Of a DNA stretch of 64,000 nt, positions 46,435 to 54,056 are shown piece after piece. The translations under genes were made by a program, and so were the position numbers. This DNA comes from an uncultured Winogradskyella sp. (GTDB taxonomy: Bacteria > Bacteroidota > Bacteroidia > Flavobacteriales > Flavobacteriaceae). Under the pieces are notes generated by a model. The model made no database searches. It was not told the DNA's origin and worked only from the letters and a program-made list of their open reading frames with translations. The stretch lies in NCBI GenBank assembly GCA_913055905.1, contig CAJXLB010000002.1, forward strand, positions 186,001-250,000. The letters are read 5' to 3'. Positions within the stretch are counted from its first letter, which is position 1, and every line of letters starts with the position of its first letter.

Positions 46435-47571
46435 ATGAAAATAGGCATTGTTTGTTATCCAACTTTTGGCGGAAGTGGTGTGGTTGCTACGGAACTAGGG
46501 CTTGAGCTTTCTAAGCGCGGACACGAAATCCATTTCATTACTTACAGTCAACCCGTTCGTCTTGAGCTCTTAAGTAATAATGTTCACTTTCACGAAGTCC
46601 ATGTTCCAGAATATCCGCTCTTTCATTATCAGCCTTACGAATTGGCACTATCCAGTAAATTGGTAGATATGGTTAAGCTGCACGGTATAGAACTTTTGCA
46701 TGTTCACTATGCCATACCTCATGCTTACGCCGCATACATGGCACAGCAGATGCTGCTTGATGAAGATATTTTGGTTCCTATAGTTACTACGCTCCATGGT
46801 ACAGATATCACCTTGGTGGGAAGCCATCCTTTTTATAAACCTGCGGTAACCTTTAGTATCAACAAATCGGATGCGGTCACTTCCGTTTCAGAAAGTCTTA
46901 GGGCAGATACCATGCGCTTATTTAATATTGAACGACCCATACATGTTGTGCCCAATTTTATTGATTTGGAAAAGCACGTTAACAATTTTACCGATTGCCA
47001 AAGGGCTATGATGGCCGAAGACCATGAACGTATCATTACGCACATCAGTAACTTTAGAGAGGTAAAACGAATTCCAGATGTCATTAAGGTATTTAACGAA
47101 ATACAAAAACAACTACCTGCCAAGCTTATGATGGTAGGAGAGGGACCTGAAAAGGAGGCCGCTGAGTTATTGGTTGATGATTTAGGCTTGACCGATCGTG
47201 TGGTGTTCCTAGGGAATAGTACTGAGATTGACCGTATTCTATGTTTTAGTGATTTGTTTTTATTGCCTTCTGAAACTGAGAGTTTCGGTCTAGCGGCTTT
47301 AGAAGCAATGGCAAGCAGTACGCCAGTAATTTCATCAAATACAGGCGGTTTGCCTGAAGTTAATTTAGATGGCTTTTCTGGGTTTTTAAGCAATGTAGGC
47401 GATGTTGAAGATATGTCTGCAAATGCCGTTAAAATCTTAAAGGACTTAAAAACACTGGAGACCTTTAAGTCCAATGCAAAATCCCAATCTGCAAAATTTG
47501 ATATTCATGCTATAGTTCCTAAGTATGAAGCTATATACGAAGAAACACTAAAAAGCTTTTTTGTGGTTTAA
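46435..47571 (+). CDS. bshA: N-acetyl-alpha-D-glucosaminyl L-malate synthase BshA
   Basis: A 378-residue GT4 enzyme that joins N-acetylglucosamine to L-malate in the first step of bacillithiol synthesis. Characteristic stretches are MKIGIVCYPTFGGSGVVATE at the N-terminus, ITLHGTDITLVG-type acceptor-site residues (TLHGTDITLVGSHP), ISNFREVKRIPDVI and PSETESFGLAALEAMASSTP. The bshB and bshC partners are not in the window. It shows that this organism uses bacillithiol as a low-molecular-weight thiol. It converges on thrC with a 4-base overlap. Confidence 0.93.
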   Translation: MKIGIVCYPTFGGSGVVATELGLELSKRGHEIHFITYSQPVRLELLSNNVHFHEVHVPEYPLFHYQPYELALSSKLVDMVKLHGIELLHVHYAIPHAYAAYMAQQMLLDEDILVPIVTTLHGTDITLVGSHPFYKPAVTFSINKSDAVTSVSESLRADTMRLFNIERPIHVVPNFIDLEKHVNNFTDCQRAMMAEDHERIITHISNFREVKRIPDVIKVFNEIQKQLPAKLMMVGEGPEKEAAELLVDDLGLTDRVVFLGNSTEIDRILCFSDLFLLPSETESFGLAALEAMASSTPVISSNTGGLPEVNLDGFSGFLSNVGDVEDMSANAVKILKDLKTLETFKSNAKSQSAKFDIHAIVPKYEAIYEETLKSFFVV

Positions 47572-48863
47572 CCTTTTAATAGAAAGGATTTTAAATCGTC
47601 GTATGATTTTATAGGTATGCTCTTCTTAGGTTTTTCCATGATGTCCTTAATTTGGTTAGGAATTGTTATTTCCTTACCTATTGTAGTTTCAACCACATCA
47701 AGGAATTTTGTCGGATGGGCAGTTTCTAGGATGACTACATGAGCCTCAGGTTCTTTTTTCAGAAAAGCTTTAGCACCTAAATACCCAACAGCGCCGTGTG
47801 GGTCAGCAATATAGTTATAGTTACGATAGAGTTCCAGAAGTGCTTGTTTCGTCTCTAAATCAGAAAAGCTGTAGGTTGATAAATTAGATTTTAAGTTGTC
47901 ATATGAATTATCATACAATTCCTTAATTCTAATAAAATTACTTGGGTTACCAACGTCCATTGCGTTGCTTATCGTAGCAACCGAAGGTTTAGGATGATAG
48001 GATTTGGTTTCCATATACCTTACAACGGTATCGTTTGAGTTATTTGCGGCAATGAAGTGTTTCACGGGAAGACCTAATTTCTGAGCGACCATTCCAGCGC
48101 AGATATTACCGTAATTACCACTGGGTACACAAAACACCAAATTTTTATAGTTGTTTTTAAGTTCCTTATAGGCGAAAAGATAATACAAGAGTTGAGGAAG
48201 CCATCGTGCTATGTTTATAGAATTGGCAGAGGTTAACTTTATTTGCTTTGATAGCTCGTCGTCTACAAAAGCCCGCTTGACCATATCTTGGCAGTCGTCA
48301 AAAACACCAGCTACCTCTAAAGCCGTTATATTTTGACCAAGCGTCGTTAACTGCTTCTCTTGAATTTTACTCACCTTCCCACTAGGATAAAGAATGACTA
48401 CCTCAACACCTTTTATTCCTAAAAAGCCATTGGCTACGGCACCACCAGTATCTCCTGAAGTGGCTACCAAAACAGTGACCTTTTGGGTATTATCTCGATT
48501 GAAATAACCCAAACAGCGCGCCATAAAACGAGCGCCTACATCTTTAAATGCCAAGGTTGGCCCGTGAAATAGTTCTAAAATGGATAGGTTTTTATTTAAC
48601 TCAACTATAGGAAAATCAAAATTTAAAGTGTCTTCGATGATGTCCTTAAGCTTAGACTCTGGGATTTCATCACCCACAAATTGTTTTAGTGCCTCGTAGG
48701 CTATTTCAATTTTTGATTTATGGTCAATAGAGCTAAAAAAATCAGAAGCTAAAGGTCTTATGTTTTTTGGGAAGTACAAGCCTTTATCTGGAGCCAAACC
48801 ATTAATTACAGCTTGTTCAAAGCTCGTATCTGGAGCAATTCTATTGAGTGAATAATAGGTCAT
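47568..48863 (-). CDS. thrC: Threonine synthase
   Basis: A 431-residue PLP enzyme converting O-phosphohomoserine to threonine. The PLP lysine lies in HGPTLAFKDVGARFM, the phosphate-binding loop is VATSGDTGGAVANGF, and PSGNYGNICAGMVAQ is typical of the longer ThrC type. It is the last gene of thrABC; its ATG shares a base with the thrB stop (TAATG), indicating coupling. Confidence 0.97.
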   Translation of the reverse strand: MTYYSLNRIAPDTSFEQAVINGLAPDKGLYFPKNIRPLASDFFSSIDHKSKIEIAYEALKQFVGDEIPESKLKDIIEDTLNFDFPIVELNKNLSILELFHGPTLAFKDVGARFMARCLGYFNRDNTQKVTVLVATSGDTGGAVANGFLGIKGVEVVILYPSGKVSKIQEKQLTTLGQNITALEVAGVFDDCQDMVKRAFVDDELSKQIKLTSANSINIARWLPQLLYYLFAYKELKNNYKNLVFCVPSGNYGNICAGMVAQKLGLPVKHFIAANNSNDTVVRYMETKSYHPKPSVATISNAMDVGNPSNFIRIKELYDNSYDNLKSNLSTYSFSDLETKQALLELYRNYNYIADPHGAVGYLGAKAFLKKEPEAHVVILETAHPTKFLDVVETTIGKEITIPNQIKDIMEKPKKSIPIKSYDDLKSFLLKG

Positions 48864-49789
48864 TATTTAATTTTAATTCCTTCTGTATTAATTTTTGAAA
48901 CATAGATTTCAAACGGTATGGTTGTGTCACTATAGATTTGGGTCATTACTTCTGCAATGGCTTTGGCCTTATCCTGGCCTTTACATAGTGTGTATATTGA
49001 TGGTCCTGATCCAGAAATCCCACATCCTAGAGCTCCAGAAGCCATAACATTTTCTTTTAATGTGTCAAATTTTGGAATAAGCGCTTTGCGATGTGGCTCG
49101 ATGATAACATCCTTTAAGCTCGATTCAATTAAATCGTAATCTGATGTATGCAATGCATGGACAAAACTCCCCATATTGGCCGTTTGAGTGATACAATTTT
49201 TCAAGCTCGTTTCTCTTGGTAAAATGGCTCTAGCATCTGCTGTTTTTATTTCTATTTGCGGATGAATAATAGCAGCAAATAAATCACTAGGAGTGGGCAA
49301 CTGTAAAACCTGAAGGGGTTGAGTGGATTTGACCAAGGTAAATCCACCAAATAGTGCAGGAGCCAAATTATCAGCATGTTCAGCCTTGCTTGCATAGGCC
49401 TCTCCTTTCATGGCGAAGGAGGTTAATTCTGTTTTGTTTAGAGGATTGCCCAAAAGGTAATTTATACCAAAAACACTTCCTGCTGCACTGGCCGCACTAC
49501 TGCCTATACCACTTCCTGGTTTGATGCGCTTATGTATTTCAATTTCAAAGCCACAGTTTGGTTTAAGATAGTCCATTAGGGCCAAAGCTGATATACCTGC
49601 GACATTTTCGGTCGTTGTAGTAGGCAAATCAAAACCTGTGATTTTGGTAATGGTGATGCCATGTCCTTCCGTTTTTCTAATAATCATGTCATCACCAATA
49701 GTGTCCAAACAAAAGCCAAGGATATCAAAGCCGCAAGATACATTTGCTACGGTCGCTGGCGTAAATAGTTTTACTTCTTTTTGTTCCAT
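48863..49789 (-). CDS. thrB: Homoserine kinase
   Basis: A 308-residue GHMP-family kinase that phosphorylates homoserine. The ATP-binding motif PGSGIGSSAASAAG lies near residues 90-105, and GCGISGSGPSIYTLC is the third GHMP motif. It begins 3 bases after the thrA stop and runs into thrC. Confidence 0.97.
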   Translation of the reverse strand: MEQKEVKLFTPATVANVSCGFDILGFCLDTIGDDMIIRKTEGHGITITKITGFDLPTTTTENVAGISALALMDYLKPNCGFEIEIHKRIKPGSGIGSSAASAAGSVFGINYLLGNPLNKTELTSFAMKGEAYASKAEHADNLAPALFGGFTLVKSTQPLQVLQLPTPSDLFAAIIHPQIEIKTADARAILPRETSLKNCITQTANMGSFVHALHTSDYDLIESSLKDVIIEPHRKALIPKFDTLKENVMASGALGCGISGSGPSIYTLCKGQDKAKAIAEVMTQIYSDTTIPFEIYVSKINTEGIKIK

Positions 49790-49792
49790 GGA

Positions 49793-52246
49793 TTAATTAT
49801 TAGCTACTCTGATGATATCTGCGAACAACCCAGAAGCGGTAACATCTGCACCTGCTCCGGCTCCTTTTATAATCATGGGTTGCTCAGGATAGCGGTCCGT
49901 GTAAAACATTACGATATTGTCTTTACCCTCTAAATTGTAGAAGGGATGACCTTCCTTTATTTCCTGAAGTCCAACTTTAGCTTTGCCGTCTTTCAATGCT
50001 GCAACAAATTTTAATTGTGCGTTTTTGCTTTGTGCCGATTTGTAAAGTGCCTGATAATGTTCTTCATCATCTATAAGTGTTTGGAAAAAGTCATCTACAG
50101 AATCAGCTTTCATGGCGTTTTCCGTTAAGAAATTTTCAGAAACTACATCTTCCAGTTCCATATCATAGCCACTTTCCCTAGCCAGAATCAATATTTTTCT
50201 TGCTACGTCAATACCACTTAGGTCAATACGAGGGTCAGGTTCGGTATAACCTTCATCTTTAGCCTGTTTAACAACCTTGTAAAACGTGTTGGAAGCATTA
50301 AAATGGTTGAAAACAAAATTTAAACTTCCAGATAATACGGCCTGTATTTCGCGAACCTTATCTCCGGAGGCTACAAGGTGATTTAGTGTGTCAATAACAG
50401 GAAGACCAGCTCCAACATTGGTTTCAAACAAAAAGGATGCATTGTATTTTAAAGCAAGCGCTTTAAGGTTTTTGTAATATTCCAACGTACCAGAACACGC
50501 AATTTTATTACATGCGATAACGGAAAAGCTTTTCTGTAAATAACCAGGATATATATGGGCGACTTCAGTATTGGCTGTAATATCAACAAATACAGAATTT
50601 CTAAGATTTAGCTGTGTAGCCTTATCCAAAAACCCTTGTAAACTAGCCGTATTACCATTTACCAATCTCTCTTTCCAGTCATTAAGGGCTATGCCGCCTT
50701 CGTCTATAAGCATGTTTTTGGAATTGGATAAACCAACCACACGAAGGTTGATTTTAAGGTTCTTCTTAACATAGCTATGCTGCTGGTGAATCTGGTTTAT
50801 AAGGCGTTCACCAACATTGCCTACACCTGTTATAAATAGGTTGACTTGCTTTGTTTTTACTTCAAAGAACGTTTCGTGCAAACTGTTAAGGGCTTTTTTT
50901 ACATCGTTCTTTTCTATAACTGCAGATATGTTTCGTTCTGAAGCACCCTGTGCAATAGCCCTTATATTAACATTGTTTTTGCCCAAAGTACTGAACATGC
51001 GGCCACTTATTCCTTGATGGTTTTTCATTTTATCACCAATTAAGGCAATTATGGACAAATTGGTTTCCACAATAATTGGTTCGAGCTTATTTAAGGCAAT
51101 TTCATATTCGAAAGCTTCGTCAATGGATTGTTTTGCTTTTAGGGCGTCAGAATCTTTGATACCAAAGCATATGGAGTGTTCTGAAGATGACTGTGTTATT
51201 AAAATAACATTGATTTTTTCTTGCGCCAAAGTTTCGAACAAACGTTTACTAAAGCCAGGAACACCAACCATACCATTACCTTGAAGCGTTAATAGTGCAA
51301 TATGGTCTATGTTGCTTATGCCTTTAACAGGCGAACTATCGTTATTGGCGTTGGTTGTTATAGTTGTACCATGATCCTTTGGTTTAAAGGTGTTTTTGAT
51401 AAGTATGGGTATTTCTTTTTGAAGCACAGGCATTACTGTTGGTGGGTACAGAACTTTGGCTCCAAAATGCGACAGTTCAATCGCCTCTTGGTAAGACAAC
51501 TCCTTTATAGGCCTTGCTTGTTTAACCAGTTTTGGGTTGGTGGTGTACATACCGCTAACGTCAGTCCAAATTTGTAATTCAGTAGCATTAATGGCAGCAG
51601 CGATAATCGCTGCCGTATAATCTGAACCGCCACGACCAAGCGTAGTACACTCTTTATGCACGGATTTGGAAATAAATCCAGGAATAAGTGTTACCCTATT
51701 GCTATTGGCTTTGAAGAAAAGCTCAATATTAAGGGTGGTAAGTTCAAAATCAACATTGGCATTGGTAAAATTATCGTCTGTAATGATGAGCTCTTGACCA
51801 TTTTTTAAAATTATGTCTCTGCTATCTGACTTAAGAGCGTGGTAAATAATGGTGGAGGATAATAATTCACCAAAACTCAATAATTTGTCCGAAGTTTTTG
51901 GAGAGATTTCATTGATTAAAAAAATACCGTCAAGTAATTGCTTAAGCTCATCCAGTAGGGCAGTAGTAGATAATCTGATAGAATCTAGATTTTTGTCTGC
52001 ATCTATAAACAACTGGTCTTCTATCTGATGATGAATTAGAGCAATCTCATCGAAATATTTGCTATAGGATTCATCTCCATCACAGGCTAACTCAGCTACT
52101 TTTACAAGCTTGTTGGTGACTCCGCCAATGGCAGATACGACAACCGTTATGTTGTCGGACTGACTTTCCGTATCTATTATAGATATAACCTTGTTAATAC
52201 TTTCTGCAGAACCTACGGAGGTTCCACCAAATTTGAGAACTTTCAT
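49793..52246 (-). CDS. thrA: Bifunctional aspartokinase I / homoserine dehydrogenase I
   Basis: An 817-residue fusion enzyme catalysing the first and third steps of threonine synthesis. The N-terminal kinase starts MKVLKFGGTSVGSAESINKV. ACT domains follow near residues 310-460 (VPGFSKRLFETLAQEKINVI), which normally bind threonine for feedback inhibition. The dehydrogenase begins near residue 465 with NLFITGVGNVGERLINQIHQ, and LSGSLNFVFNHF marks its substrate region. It is preceded by a threonine-rich leader peptide. Confidence 0.97.
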   Translation of the reverse strand: MKVLKFGGTSVGSAESINKVISIIDTESQSDNITVVVSAIGGVTNKLVKVAELACDGDESYSKYFDEIALIHHQIEDQLFIDADKNLDSIRLSTTALLDELKQLLDGIFLINEISPKTSDKLLSFGELLSSTIIYHALKSDSRDIILKNGQELIITDDNFTNANVDFELTTLNIELFFKANSNRVTLIPGFISKSVHKECTTLGRGGSDYTAAIIAAAINATELQIWTDVSGMYTTNPKLVKQARPIKELSYQEAIELSHFGAKVLYPPTVMPVLQKEIPILIKNTFKPKDHGTTITTNANNDSSPVKGISNIDHIALLTLQGNGMVGVPGFSKRLFETLAQEKINVILITQSSSEHSICFGIKDSDALKAKQSIDEAFEYEIALNKLEPIIVETNLSIIALIGDKMKNHQGISGRMFSTLGKNNVNIRAIAQGASERNISAVIEKNDVKKALNSLHETFFEVKTKQVNLFITGVGNVGERLINQIHQQHSYVKKNLKINLRVVGLSNSKNMLIDEGGIALNDWKERLVNGNTASLQGFLDKATQLNLRNSVFVDITANTEVAHIYPGYLQKSFSVIACNKIACSGTLEYYKNLKALALKYNASFLFETNVGAGLPVIDTLNHLVASGDKVREIQAVLSGSLNFVFNHFNASNTFYKVVKQAKDEGYTEPDPRIDLSGIDVARKILILARESGYDMELEDVVSENFLTENAMKADSVDDFFQTLIDDEEHYQALYKSAQSKNAQLKFVAALKDGKAKVGLQEIKEGHPFYNLEGKDNIVMFYTDRYPEQPMIIKGAGAGADVTASGLFADIIRVANN

Positions 52247-52279
52247 AAAAATGATTTAAAACAATGGAAATTAAAACGT

Positions 52280-52362
52280 ATGACGAAAGCAATTTAGAAC
52301 CTTGCCCTTAGGGTGGTCATGGTCGTCATAAAATACATCAAATCTATGGCGTAGTTTGATGT
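52280..52362 (-). promoter_or_regulatory. thr operon leader RNA structures (putative attenuator)
   Basis: Two inverted repeats lie in the leader. The first is ACATCAAA / TTTGATGT (52335-52342 and 52355-52362), inside the middle of the leader peptide gene, extended by three more pairs in its loop. The second is ATGACGA / TCGTCAT (52280-52286 with 52323-52329). One arm of the second repeat holds the Met-Thr-Thr codons of the leader peptide, and on the transcript the other arm is followed by a U-rich stretch before thrA. A ribosome waiting at those threonine codons would block the second stem. The mechanism is inferred. Confidence 0.6.
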
Positions 52363-52401
52363 GGTAATGGTATTAAAGGTTATGGTTATTTTTTTCCTCA
52401 T
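52294..52401 (-). CDS. thrL: Threonine-rich leader peptide of the thrABC operon
   Basis: A 35-codon frame read from the minus strand: ATG at 52401-52399, TAA at 52296-52294, 47 bases before thrA. It begins MRKKITITFNTITT and ends MTTMTTLRARF, with nine threonine and four isoleucine codons in two clusters. This is the same logic as the enterobacterial ThrL peptide, although the sequence differs. I re-read each codon from the DNA. The -7 promoter element ends only seven bases before the ATG, so the leader message is nearly leaderless. Expected action: threonine or isoleucine shortage stalls the ribosome and changes the RNA fold. Confidence 0.8.
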   Translation of the reverse strand: MRKKITITFNTITTSNYAIDLMYFMTTMTTLRARF

Positions 52402-52408
52402 TACTTCT

Positions 52409-52416
52409 CAAATGTA
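52409..52416 (-). promoter_or_regulatory. -7 promoter element (TACATTTG, minus strand) for the thr leader and operon
   Basis: Exact TAnnTTTG match reading leftward, immediately before the leader peptide ATG. No TTTG at the -33 position. Confidence 0.5.
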
Positions 52417-52496
52417 TTATTTTTACGAGAATAAAAAAATATTTCAGCGTTTAAAATTTTGACTTTTAAAGCATTTGATAAGGACCAGTTTTTTGT

Positions 52497-54056
52497 ATGA
52501 AAGTATTCTCTAAAGAACAGATTTATGAAGGTGATCGCCTAACTACAGAACGCCAAAACATTTCCTCAACCGACCTAATGGAGCGTGCAGGAACCCAGAT
52601 TTTTAATTGGATGCATTTAAGGATGCAGGGAGCACAAGTTCCTGTCCATGTGTTCTGTGGTATTGGGAATAATGGTGGGGACGGATTGGTTCTAAGTAGG
52701 CAACTTATTATACACGGTTACAATGTAAAGACCTATATAGTTAATTACAGCGAAAAACGATCTAAGGATTTTCTAGTCAATTATGATAGGATAAAAAACA
52801 CTACTAAGGATTGGCCCACCATTTTAAATGGCGCTGATGAATTTCCAGATATTCATCAAGACGATATTATCGTAGATGCTGTTTTTGGCATTGGTTTAAA
52901 CCGACCACCTGCAGAATGGGTAAAAGCGCTCTTTTTAAAATTTAGGGAATCGAAGGCTTTTACTTTATCTATTGATATTCCCTCTGGCCTGTATACAGAT
53001 AAAGCAGTTGAGGACTCAGACGCAGTTGTTCATGCAAATTATACCTTAAGTTTTCAGGCACCCAAGCTAGTTTTCTTTCTACCAGAAACAGCACGTTTTA
53101 CGATACAATGGGAAGTGTTGGACATAGGTATTGATCGCGATTATTTAGCACAAACGGAAACAGCTGTAGAGCTTATAGCAAGGCACGAAGTATTACCAAT
53201 GTACAAACCAAGAGAAAAATTCTCGCACAAGGGTGATTTTGGACATGCTTTAGTGATAGGTGGTAGTTATGGTAAAATTGGAGCTCTAGTATTGGCTAGT
53301 CGCTCGGCTTTATTGTCTGGCGCAGGATTGGTAACGGCTTATTCACCTAGGTGTGGTTATACAATTTTACAAACCGCTCTGCCCGAGGTTATGGTATTGT
53401 GCGATAAAGGTGAAAATAATATAGAATCTATTGATTTTGATATAGAACCTTCAGTAATTGGCATAGGTGTTGGTCTTGGTACTTCTGATGAAACGTTACA
53501 TGCTTTTGAGCAATTTTTAAAAGGGAATAAAACACCTTTGGTTTTGGATGCCGATGCCATCAATTTATTGGCAAAACAAAAAACGTTATTAAAACATCTT
53601 CCTGAGCAAACAGTATTAACACCACACCCAAAAGAACTCGAGCGCTTAATAGGCAATTGGTCCAATGATTTTGAGAAATTGAGTAAGGTCTCAAAGTTTT
53701 CTCTAAAGCATAATGTCATAGTAATTATCAAAGGTGCCCATAGTATCACGGTATATGGTGAAAAACACTACATTAACACCACTGGGAATCCAGGAATGGC
53801 CACTGCTGGTAGCGGTGATGTATTAACAGGTGTTATTACAGGTTTAATAGCACAAGGCTATGATCCACTGCCTGCGAGTCTCTTCGGTGTTTATTTACAT
53901 GGGAAATCGGGCGATATTGCTGTAGAAAACCATGGCTATCAGAGTTTAATCGCAGGACACCTCATTGATAATTTAAGTCAAGCTTATCTAGATCTTTTCA
54001 AACAGCCAGAAGAACCTGTGGAATCCAACGAAAAGGCAGAAGAAGATTCAGACTAA
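52497..54056 (+). CDS. nnr: Bifunctional NAD(P)HX epimerase / dehydratase
   Basis: A 519-residue repair enzyme that restores NAD(P)H from its hydrated forms. Residues about 1-215 are the epimerase (FCGIGNNGGDGLVLSRQL, IDIPSGLYTD). Residues about 235-505 are the ribokinase-like dehydratase with HKGDFGHALVIGGSYGKIGA, TPHPKELERL and the nucleotide loop NPGMATAGSGDVLTGVI. A charged C-terminal tail (EEPVESNEKAEEDSD) is unusual. It diverges from the thr operon and precedes hutH by 31 bases. Confidence 0.95.
   Translation: MKVFSKEQIYEGDRLTTERQNISSTDLMERAGTQIFNWMHLRMQGAQVPVHVFCGIGNNGGDGLVLSRQLIIHGYNVKTYIVNYSEKRSKDFLVNYDRIKNTTKDWPTILNGADEFPDIHQDDIIVDAVFGIGLNRPPAEWVKALFLKFRESKAFTLSIDIPSGLYTDKAVEDSDAVVHANYTLSFQAPKLVFFLPETARFTIQWEVLDIGIDRDYLAQTETAVELIARHEVLPMYKPREKFSHKGDFGHALVIGGSYGKIGALVLASRSALLSGAGLVTAYSPRCGYTILQTALPEVMVLCDKGENNIESIDFDIEPSVIGIGVGLGTSDETLHAFEQFLKGNKTPLVLDADAINLLAKQKTLLKHLPEQTVLTPHPKELERLIGNWSNDFEKLSKVSKFSLKHNVIVIIKGAHSITVYGEKHYINTTGNPGMATAGSGDVLTGVITGLIAQGYDPLPASLFGVYLHGKSGDIAVENHGYQSLIAGHLIDNLSQAYLDLFKQPEEPVESNEKAEEDSD

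What the first reader, a model, noticed from the sequence alone, without database searches (positions are those of the whole stretch)
52247..52416. Threonine-rich leader peptide with two alternative RNA stems before thrABC
A 35-codon gene with nine Thr and four Ile codons in two clusters sits between a -7 promoter element and thrA. Its second cluster (MTTMTT) is encoded by the same bases that form one arm of an inverted repeat (ATGACGA / TCGTCAT) just before thrA. Another inverted repeat lies in the middle of the frame. This looks like ribosome-mediated attenuation in a Bacteroidota organism, with a peptide unrelated in sequence to ThrL. The frame was re-read base by base. The message would be almost leaderless, which is unusual for an attenuator.
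Basis: partly seen in the sequence, partly recalled or inferred. Interest (0 to 1): 0.78.

Follow-up and report, generated by a model that had tools for sequence, protein, structure and literature searches.

The report
Threonine leader peptide before thrABC
Upstream of the threonine-making genes of this bacterium sits a tiny threonine-rich gene that probably lets the cell sense threonine shortage; relatives keep it with a hairpin at its stop codon but mostly without the usual transcription stop signal, so the last step of the switch is still unknown.

Summary
Minus strand 52401..52294 encodes a 35-codon frame with 9 Thr, 7 nt after a TAnnTTTG box and 47 nt before thrA (fused aspartate kinase/homoserine dehydrogenase), thrB and thrC. 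The frame recurs before thrA: at a strict score 102 of 177 upstream regions, against 0 of 531 shuffles and 0 of 180 control flanks. Relatives keep a short hairpin at the leader's stop codon (P1), a G-poor stretch, and a covarying, mostly AU-rich hairpin (P2). His and trp leaders of the same family end in canonical terminators (27 of 28, 27 of 29); of 97 Thr-rich thr leaders only 3 have one by the same test. So the output step differs from the textbook design; Rho-dependent termination or a U-tract-less P2 are candidates, neither shown. In this genome P1 is weak and P2 absent. Leader-peptide attenuation in flavobacteria has been proposed in print (PMC9723704); my searches listed no description of this thr element, but subscription papers were not searchable. 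No Rfam match.

The parts
52409..52416 (-). -7 promoter box TACATTTG (Bacteroidota TAnnTTTG type; the consensus is recalled)
   Evidence: Sequence. TAnnTTTG lies 40-160 nt upstream of the P1 anchor in 112 of 121 loci; 13.9 expected from shuffles.
52430..52442 (-). T-rich stretch at the place of a -33 element
   Evidence: Sequence; TTTG or T5 at this place in 96 of 111 loci, no shuffle control made.
52294..52401 (-). thr leader peptide gene, 35 codons, 9 Thr, stop TAA included
   Evidence: conserved upstream of thrA. No NCBIfam match.
52312..52329 (-). second Thr cluster (MTTMTT), running into P1
   Evidence: Sequence; in 120 leaders of relatives the last 12 codons are 32% Thr.
52299..52317 (-). 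P1, weak hairpin ACC.CCC(TAA)GGG...GGT just before the stop codon
   Evidence: Homologous place of the conserved P1; predicted -3.9 kcal/mol, like -3.8 in sister L001 and unlike -6.2 to -8.1 for four common forms in relatives; it failed the stem test that 120 of 121 loci passed.
52282..52292 (-). TTGCTTTCGTC, apparent counterpart of the G-poor motif (e.g. ATATGCTTTCCGTCCC in the genus)
   Evidence: Matched by eye and on the pairwise alignment with L001.
   Evidence: Folds; counterpart seen only in sister L001.
52280..52286 (-).
   Evidence: Folds; not above shuffles in the genus.
49793..52246 (-). thrA, bifunctional aspartate kinase/homoserine dehydrogenase I
   Evidence: NF006959, 1046 bits, cut-off 726.
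48863..49789 (-). thrB, homoserine kinase
   Evidence: NF002288 and TIGR00191 over cut-off.
47568..48863 (-). thrC, threonine synthase
   Evidence: TIGR00260 over cut-off.

Best explanation
A threonine (and isoleucine) sensing leader peptide gene controls thrABC. Shown by sequence: a conserved promoter box upstream of the frame, a conserved Thr-rich frame that ends at a hairpin (P1), and then a G-poor stretch and a covarying hairpin (P2) in most relatives. Inferred: when charged tRNA-Thr is scarce the ribosome stops on the Thr run that abuts P1; when it is plentiful the ribosome reaches the stop codon at P1 and leaves. The two situations give different RNA downstream, so that transcription into thrA is allowed in the first and curtailed in the second. 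Inferred and less certain (about 0.35): the curtailing agent is Rho, loading on the G-poor stretch after ribosome release, because an intrinsic terminator is missing.
For: Leader score >=6 in 102 of 177 regions against 0 of 531 shuffles and 0 of 180 control flanks. In 120 leaders Thr is 3.8x and Ile 1.6x its share in four window proteins (Trp 4.5x, Cys 2.75x and Phe 1.7x are also up; Trp and Cys sit in the P1 codons and just after, by eye). Promoter box in 112 of 121, 13.9 expected. P1 is kept as RNA and not only as codons: the stop codon begins in its loop or 5' arm in 14 of 120, so the 3' arm is almost wholly untranslated; in five of six f16 loci read the arms are reversed, GGG...CCC around the stop. 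P2: found in 83 of 118 loci against 15% of 1180 shuffles, and its distance from P1 has sd 2.9 nt (20-37) against 9.4 (12-46) in shuffles searched the same way, while its distance to thrA has sd 26.5 (7-221); so the module goes with the leader, not with the thrA start. Paired changes: covariation score 0.182 against 0.091 in A1 (34 loci) and 0.313 against 0.094 in A2 (46 loci), 0 of 500 shuffles reach either. P1-P2 stretch: C/G 2.41, YC density 0.145, against 0.63 and 0.032 (his) and 1.6 and 0.084 (trp) between leader stop and terminator. In 11 of 12 f39 loci the same place holds a canonical terminator, so the two builds seem to replace each other.
Against: No expression data. A ribosome stalled on the Thr run would not by itself cover the G-poor stretch, so how it keeps Rho off is unexplained. 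C over G is not special to the P1-P2 stretch: P2-thrA has C/G 3.5, his leader frames 1.63 against 1.48 in thr frames. Weaker covariation measures are reached by shuffles: pairs changed on both sides, 29 of 500 (A1) and 65 of 500 (A2); further pair types, 98 of 500 (A1); relatedness can raise all of them. In this genome P1 is weak, P2 absent and the model finds nothing. 9 of 30 genus loci read lack the leader, 3 of them (L045-L047) keeping the promoter. Outside the family 34 of 70 loci show no Thr-rich leader by eye.
Confidence: 0.72

Rival explanations
1. The output is set by P2 itself: a hairpin without a U-tract that terminates or pauses RNA polymerase, or protects a 3' end, perhaps with NusA/NusG. 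Ribosome position decides whether it acts.
For: P2 covaries, keeps a tight distance from P1, and lies near the place of the canonical terminator seen in f39.
Against: P2 is mostly AU-rich and weak (-3.0 and -4.0 kcal/mol for two examples), by eye is not followed by an immediate U-run in most loci listed, and is missing in the window and L001.
Confidence: 0.25
2. Textbook attenuation with an intrinsic terminator and mutually exclusive stems.
For: True of some Bacteroidota thr leaders (11 of 12 in f39; L149 and L152 in the family, L013) and of his and trp leaders in the same family.
Against: No terminator-like site in window 51800-52700; 3 of 97 Thr-rich family leaders by a test that finds 27 of 28 his and 27 of 29 trp ones; stems not conserved.
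Confidence: 0.07
3. Translational attenuation: the RNA between leader and thrA opens or closes the thrA start site.
For: In one clade of 32 loci RNAalifold puts the thrA AUG region in a hairpin and gives the motif up to 0.39 probability of pairing with early thrA codons; thrA is only 47 nt away in the window.
Against: P2-thrA distance varies from 7 to 221 nt; the pairings were not seen in the genus alignment.
Confidence: 0.07
4. In this species the element is a decayed remnant: the frame persists but the RNA switch no longer works.
For: Weak P1, no P2, no model hit; loss of the leader elsewhere in the genus.
Against: Promoter, start and most Thr codons are kept in the sister L001, whose P1 is an unbroken 5-bp stem, though no more stable (-3.8 kcal/mol).
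Confidence: 0.15
5. P2 is a DNA palindrome bound by a protein rather than an RNA hairpin.
For: Near-perfect palindromes such as TGTCTATACAGACA; G-U against A-C cells do not separate the two readings well (A1 7 to 1, A2 11 to 8).
Against: Loop length varies from 3 to 10 nt, unusual for an operator; arms differ widely between genera.
Confidence: 0.1

Closest known systems
E. coli thrL attenuator (Rfam Thr_leader, RF00506; number and peptide recalled)
   Same: Thr and Ile rich leader frame before a fused thrA and thrBC.
   Different: Peptide unrelated by eye; no intrinsic terminator found; hairpin at the stop codon in relatives; nearly leaderless in this genus by sequence. No Rfam match in the window.
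Bacteroid-trp RNA (Rfam RF01692)
   Same: Leader-peptide RNA before an amino acid operon in the same family; it hits trp locus L261.
   Different: Trp codons and a canonical terminator; no match in the 10 thr loci of the same family given.
Leader-peptide attenuation in Flavobacterium psychrophilum (PMC9723704, 2021; passages read, supplement not readable here)
   Same: Reports strong clues for leader-peptide attenuation before amino acid operons.
   Different: The passages I saw do not name thrA or describe P1, the motif or P2.
Leader-like short ORFs in Bacteroides thetaiotaomicron (PMC7366714, 2020; passages read)
   Same: Notes short ORFs in long 5' UTRs reminiscent of attenuating leader peptides.
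   Different: The passages seen give no thr example and no mechanism.
Vitreschak et al. 2004, FEMS Microbiol Lett 234:357 (title seen in a reference list; text not held; recalled to include Bacteroidetes/Chlorobi cases)
   Same: Comparative prediction of amino acid attenuators.
   Different: Could not be read, so whether it already lists a Bacteroidetes thr attenuator is open.
Rho-dependent leader ORF control, e.g. mdtU of E. coli (PMC7815308, passages) and the topAI leader (PMC12121999, start of abstract in a listing); tnaC and mgtL recalled
   Same: Short ORF upstream, termination by Rho rather than by an intrinsic terminator.
   Different: No amino acid run with a conserved stop-codon hairpin is described in what I saw; the Rho role here is only inferred.

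Membership tests
Ribosome-mediated (classic) amino acid attenuator | Short leader frame enriched in codons of the operon's product | tested here: met
   9 of 35 Thr, rank 1 of 480; Thr 3.8x in 120 leaders.
Ribosome-mediated (classic) amino acid attenuator | Lies between promoter and the cognate biosynthetic operon | tested here: met
   Promoter box by sequence and thrABC; transcription start not mapped.
Ribosome-mediated (classic) amino acid attenuator | Intrinsic terminator between leader and first gene | tested here: not met
   0 in window 51800-52700; 3 of 97 Thr-rich family leaders; 7 of 120 with P1 when P1 itself is included in the test.
Ribosome-mediated (classic) amino acid attenuator | Mutually exclusive alternative pairing | tested here: inconclusive
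Ribosome-mediated (classic) amino acid attenuator | Response to starvation for the amino acid | not testable with these tools
   Needs a reporter.
Rfam Thr_leader | Match at the gathering score | tested here: not met
   No match in the window or in the 11 thr loci among 13 sources.
Rho-dependent leader ORF attenuator | C-rich, G-poor RNA after the leader stop | tested here: met
   C/G 2.41, YC 0.145 in 83 relatives; composition only, and trp leaders (C/G 1.6) are intermediate.
Rho-dependent leader ORF attenuator | Premature 3' ends that depend on Rho | not testable with these tools
   Needs 3'-end mapping with Rho inhibited.
Leaderless mRNA | Start codon at or within a few nt of the 5' end | tested here: inconclusive
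   ATG 7 nt after the -7 box; start site unmapped.

The most novel reading that the evidence does not exclude
Many Bacteroidia regulate threonine synthesis with a leader-peptide attenuator of a distinct build: the stop codon is held in or beside a hairpin that the terminating ribosome must open, and the decision is executed without an intrinsic terminator, probably through Rho on a G-poor stretch bounded by P1 and P2, while his and trp in the same cells use canonical terminators.
Probability: 0.35. Interest if true: 0.7.

Novelty: new variant of a known kind. Interest (0 to 1): 0.5.

Why it matters
My paper searches listed little on attenuation in Bacteroidota. If right, one cell uses two different output steps for the same sensing principle, a natural comparison for what Rho, a pause hairpin or RNA decay can do in place of an intrinsic terminator. 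It also gives a concrete RNA element (P1, motif, P2), without an Rfam match in the loci tested, that can be tried in a laboratory flavobacterium.

Tried and rejected
G-run of P1 pairing with the motif: RNAalifold shows it in one clade and the partner falls mostly at the motif, but mean duplex energy is -4.43 against -4.56 in shuffles, 118 loci. Second promoter inside the module: TAnnTTTG between P1 and thrA in 19 of 120 loci, 6.7 expected from mononucleotide shuffles; 17 of them 21-28 nt after P1, nearly all one clade; rejected as a general feature. Column-wise mutual information on a plain alignment: noise, P2 was misaligned. Use of the P1-P2 RNA elsewhere: model R1 on 149 genomes (strict filters) gave 38 matches in 37 genomes; two away from thrA were read, one lies inside a coding frame and neither has a leader-like frame; the other 36 lie at thrA, one read (G164) and the rest judged by eye from coordinates. 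Against 79 loci and the window it gave 46 matches at E up to 1, so it misses many of the divergent ones, the window included.

Rows dropped: 11 of 188 thrA upstream loci before the 177 (paralogues, duplicates, non-Bacteroidota and truncated hits); 14 of 135 anchored loci before the promoter count, among them terminator-type relatives such as L149; the window locus failed the P1 stem test, so the 120 exclude it. The 120 were picked for having P1; they include the terminator-type L013 and at least three loci from outside the family. Because that choice could hide terminators, I repeated the test on 97 of 157 family loci chosen by Thr content alone: 3 of 97, of which L149 and L152 look real. My terminator script also missed stems in L175 and L293 that I judge terminator-like by eye. 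A2 was fitted to the model structure, so its pair counts lean towards it.

Full report
What is there. On the minus strand a TACATTTG box (52416..52409) is followed after 7 nt by a 35-codon frame (52401..52294) with 9 Thr, and after 47 nt by thrA (52246..49793), thrB and thrC. The frame has the highest Thr fraction of 480 ORFs of 25-60 aa in the window. The window lies in a 2.95-Mb genome in 13 contigs; the nearest named relative found is Winogradskyella pelagia (L001, ThrA 80% identical; records very near the window may be left out there). A divergent gene for an NAD(P)H-hydrate epimerase/dehydratase-like protein starts at 52497.

Conservation. ThrA was used to collect upstream regions from named genomes, 41 genomes of the genus, 199 of the family and 119 of the class. 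Not every match was read: 30 loci per search were given, and 80 further family matches were taken as stretches. Of 177 upstream regions kept, 135 score at least 3.5 for a Thr-rich frame running into a C-run/G-run hairpin and 102 at least 6; dinucleotide shuffles give 7.7% and 0 of 531, flanks of his, ilvD and trp genes 8.3% and 0 of 180. In the genus 21 of 30 loci read carry it, L034 counted by eye; L045-L053 do not, the loose scores of L048 and L053 being judged false. A TAnnTTTG box precedes the frame in 112 of 121 loci, 13.9 expected. The start codon is 7 nt after the box in 18 loci, all of this genus or L001, and 16-23 nt in 73 of 111.

Conserved RNA parts. P1 is a hairpin of 4-9 pairs, mostly of the type ACCC(N3-4)GGGT, at the end of the frame. 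The stop codon begins after it in 85 of 120 loci (1-4 nt after in 78), in its 3' arm in 21 and in its loop or 5' arm in 14. The last group shows that an almost wholly untranslated 3' arm is kept for its own sake. After P1 comes a stretch that resembles UAUAU-N-UUCUYC and is poor in G. P2 follows at 20-37 nt in 83 of 118 loci, against 15% of shuffles, with a far tighter distance than in shuffles (sd 2.9 against 9.4); a first scan gave hairpin scores of 12 or more in 75% of 131 loci against 35% of shuffles. Its pairs change on both sides, though some covariation measures are within reach of shuffles.

Mostly no terminator. With one scripted test, 27 of 28 his leaders and 27 of 29 trp leaders (30 loci each) of the same family have a stem followed by a T-run. 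For thr it is 7 of 120 loci chosen by P1, of which only L013 looks convincing, and 3 of 97 family loci chosen by Thr content alone, of which L149 and L152 look real. Only 6 ilv leaders were recognised, 3 with a terminator. The tool scan finds none in window 51800-52700, where 0.4 would be expected by chance.

Other Bacteroidia. From a search of 316 class genomes (80 with a match) and, 75 upstream regions were compared, 70 of them outside the family. By eye 36 of the 70 have a Thr-rich leader and 34 do not. In f39, 11 of 12 have a leader with a strong terminator. Loci with leaders in f2, f13, f14, f16, f32 and f35 mostly show P1 without a clear terminator; in f16 five of six loci read have P1 with reversed arms, and a seventh (L304) has no such leader. 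L293 (f48) and L175 (f35) have terminator-like stems by eye that the script missed; L181 and L182 have borderline ones.

How it probably works. Stalling of the ribosome on the Thr run under Thr (or Ile) shortage, against completion at the stop codon, is the sensing step; this is inferred from codon content, place and conservation. That the module keeps its distance to the leader and not to thrA points to transcription elongation rather than to the thrA start site. [quoted passage not shown] This last step is a guess with strong rivals; the one structural idea I tested for it failed, and C over G is also seen between P2 and thrA.

This genome. The window's own copy is derived: P1 is predicted at -3.9 kcal/mol, like -3.8 in L001 and against -6.2 to -8.1 for four common forms in relatives; P2 is absent, and the model built on relatives does not find it. 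Whether the switch still works here is open.

What is known. Rfam has no match at the gathering score in the window or in the 11 thr loci searched, while one trp leader hits Bacteroid-trp. PMC9723704 (passages) reports strong clues for leader-peptide attenuation before amino acid operons of a flavobacterium, and PMC7366714 (passages) notes leader-like short ORFs in B. thetaiotaomicron. The searches listed no paper that, from its title and abstract start or the passages I read, describes a Bacteroidota thr leader; subscription papers, including Vitreschak et al. 2004, are not held, so absence from print is not established. I therefore rate it a new variant of a known kind.

Noticed in passing
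L190-L219 (his), L250-L279 (trp), L220-L249 (ilvD): 28 of 30 his loci and 29 of 30 trp loci of the family carry His-run or WWW leader peptides, 27 of each with a terminator by script; the one his locus given to Rfam (L203) has no match.
   Followed up: partly
L045, L046, L047 upstream of thrA: The TAATACATTTG promoter is kept but no Thr-rich frame was found, so thrA regulation may have been relaxed or replaced.
   Followed up: no
L171, L174, L180, L305-L310, L315, L318 (family f39); L149, L152 (own family): Thr leaders with strong terminators; a possible ancestral or independently gained form of the same control.
   Followed up: partly
L173, L178, L182, L312, L333 (family f16): The stop-codon hairpin has reversed arms (ACGGG..CCCGT type) with the stop codon at or in the loop.
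   Followed up: partly
P1-P2 gap of 17 loci, nearly all one clade, e.g. L058, L060, L089: TAnnTTTG occurs 21-28 nt after P1, overlapping the 5' arm of P2; a lineage-specific second promoter is possible.
   Followed up: partly
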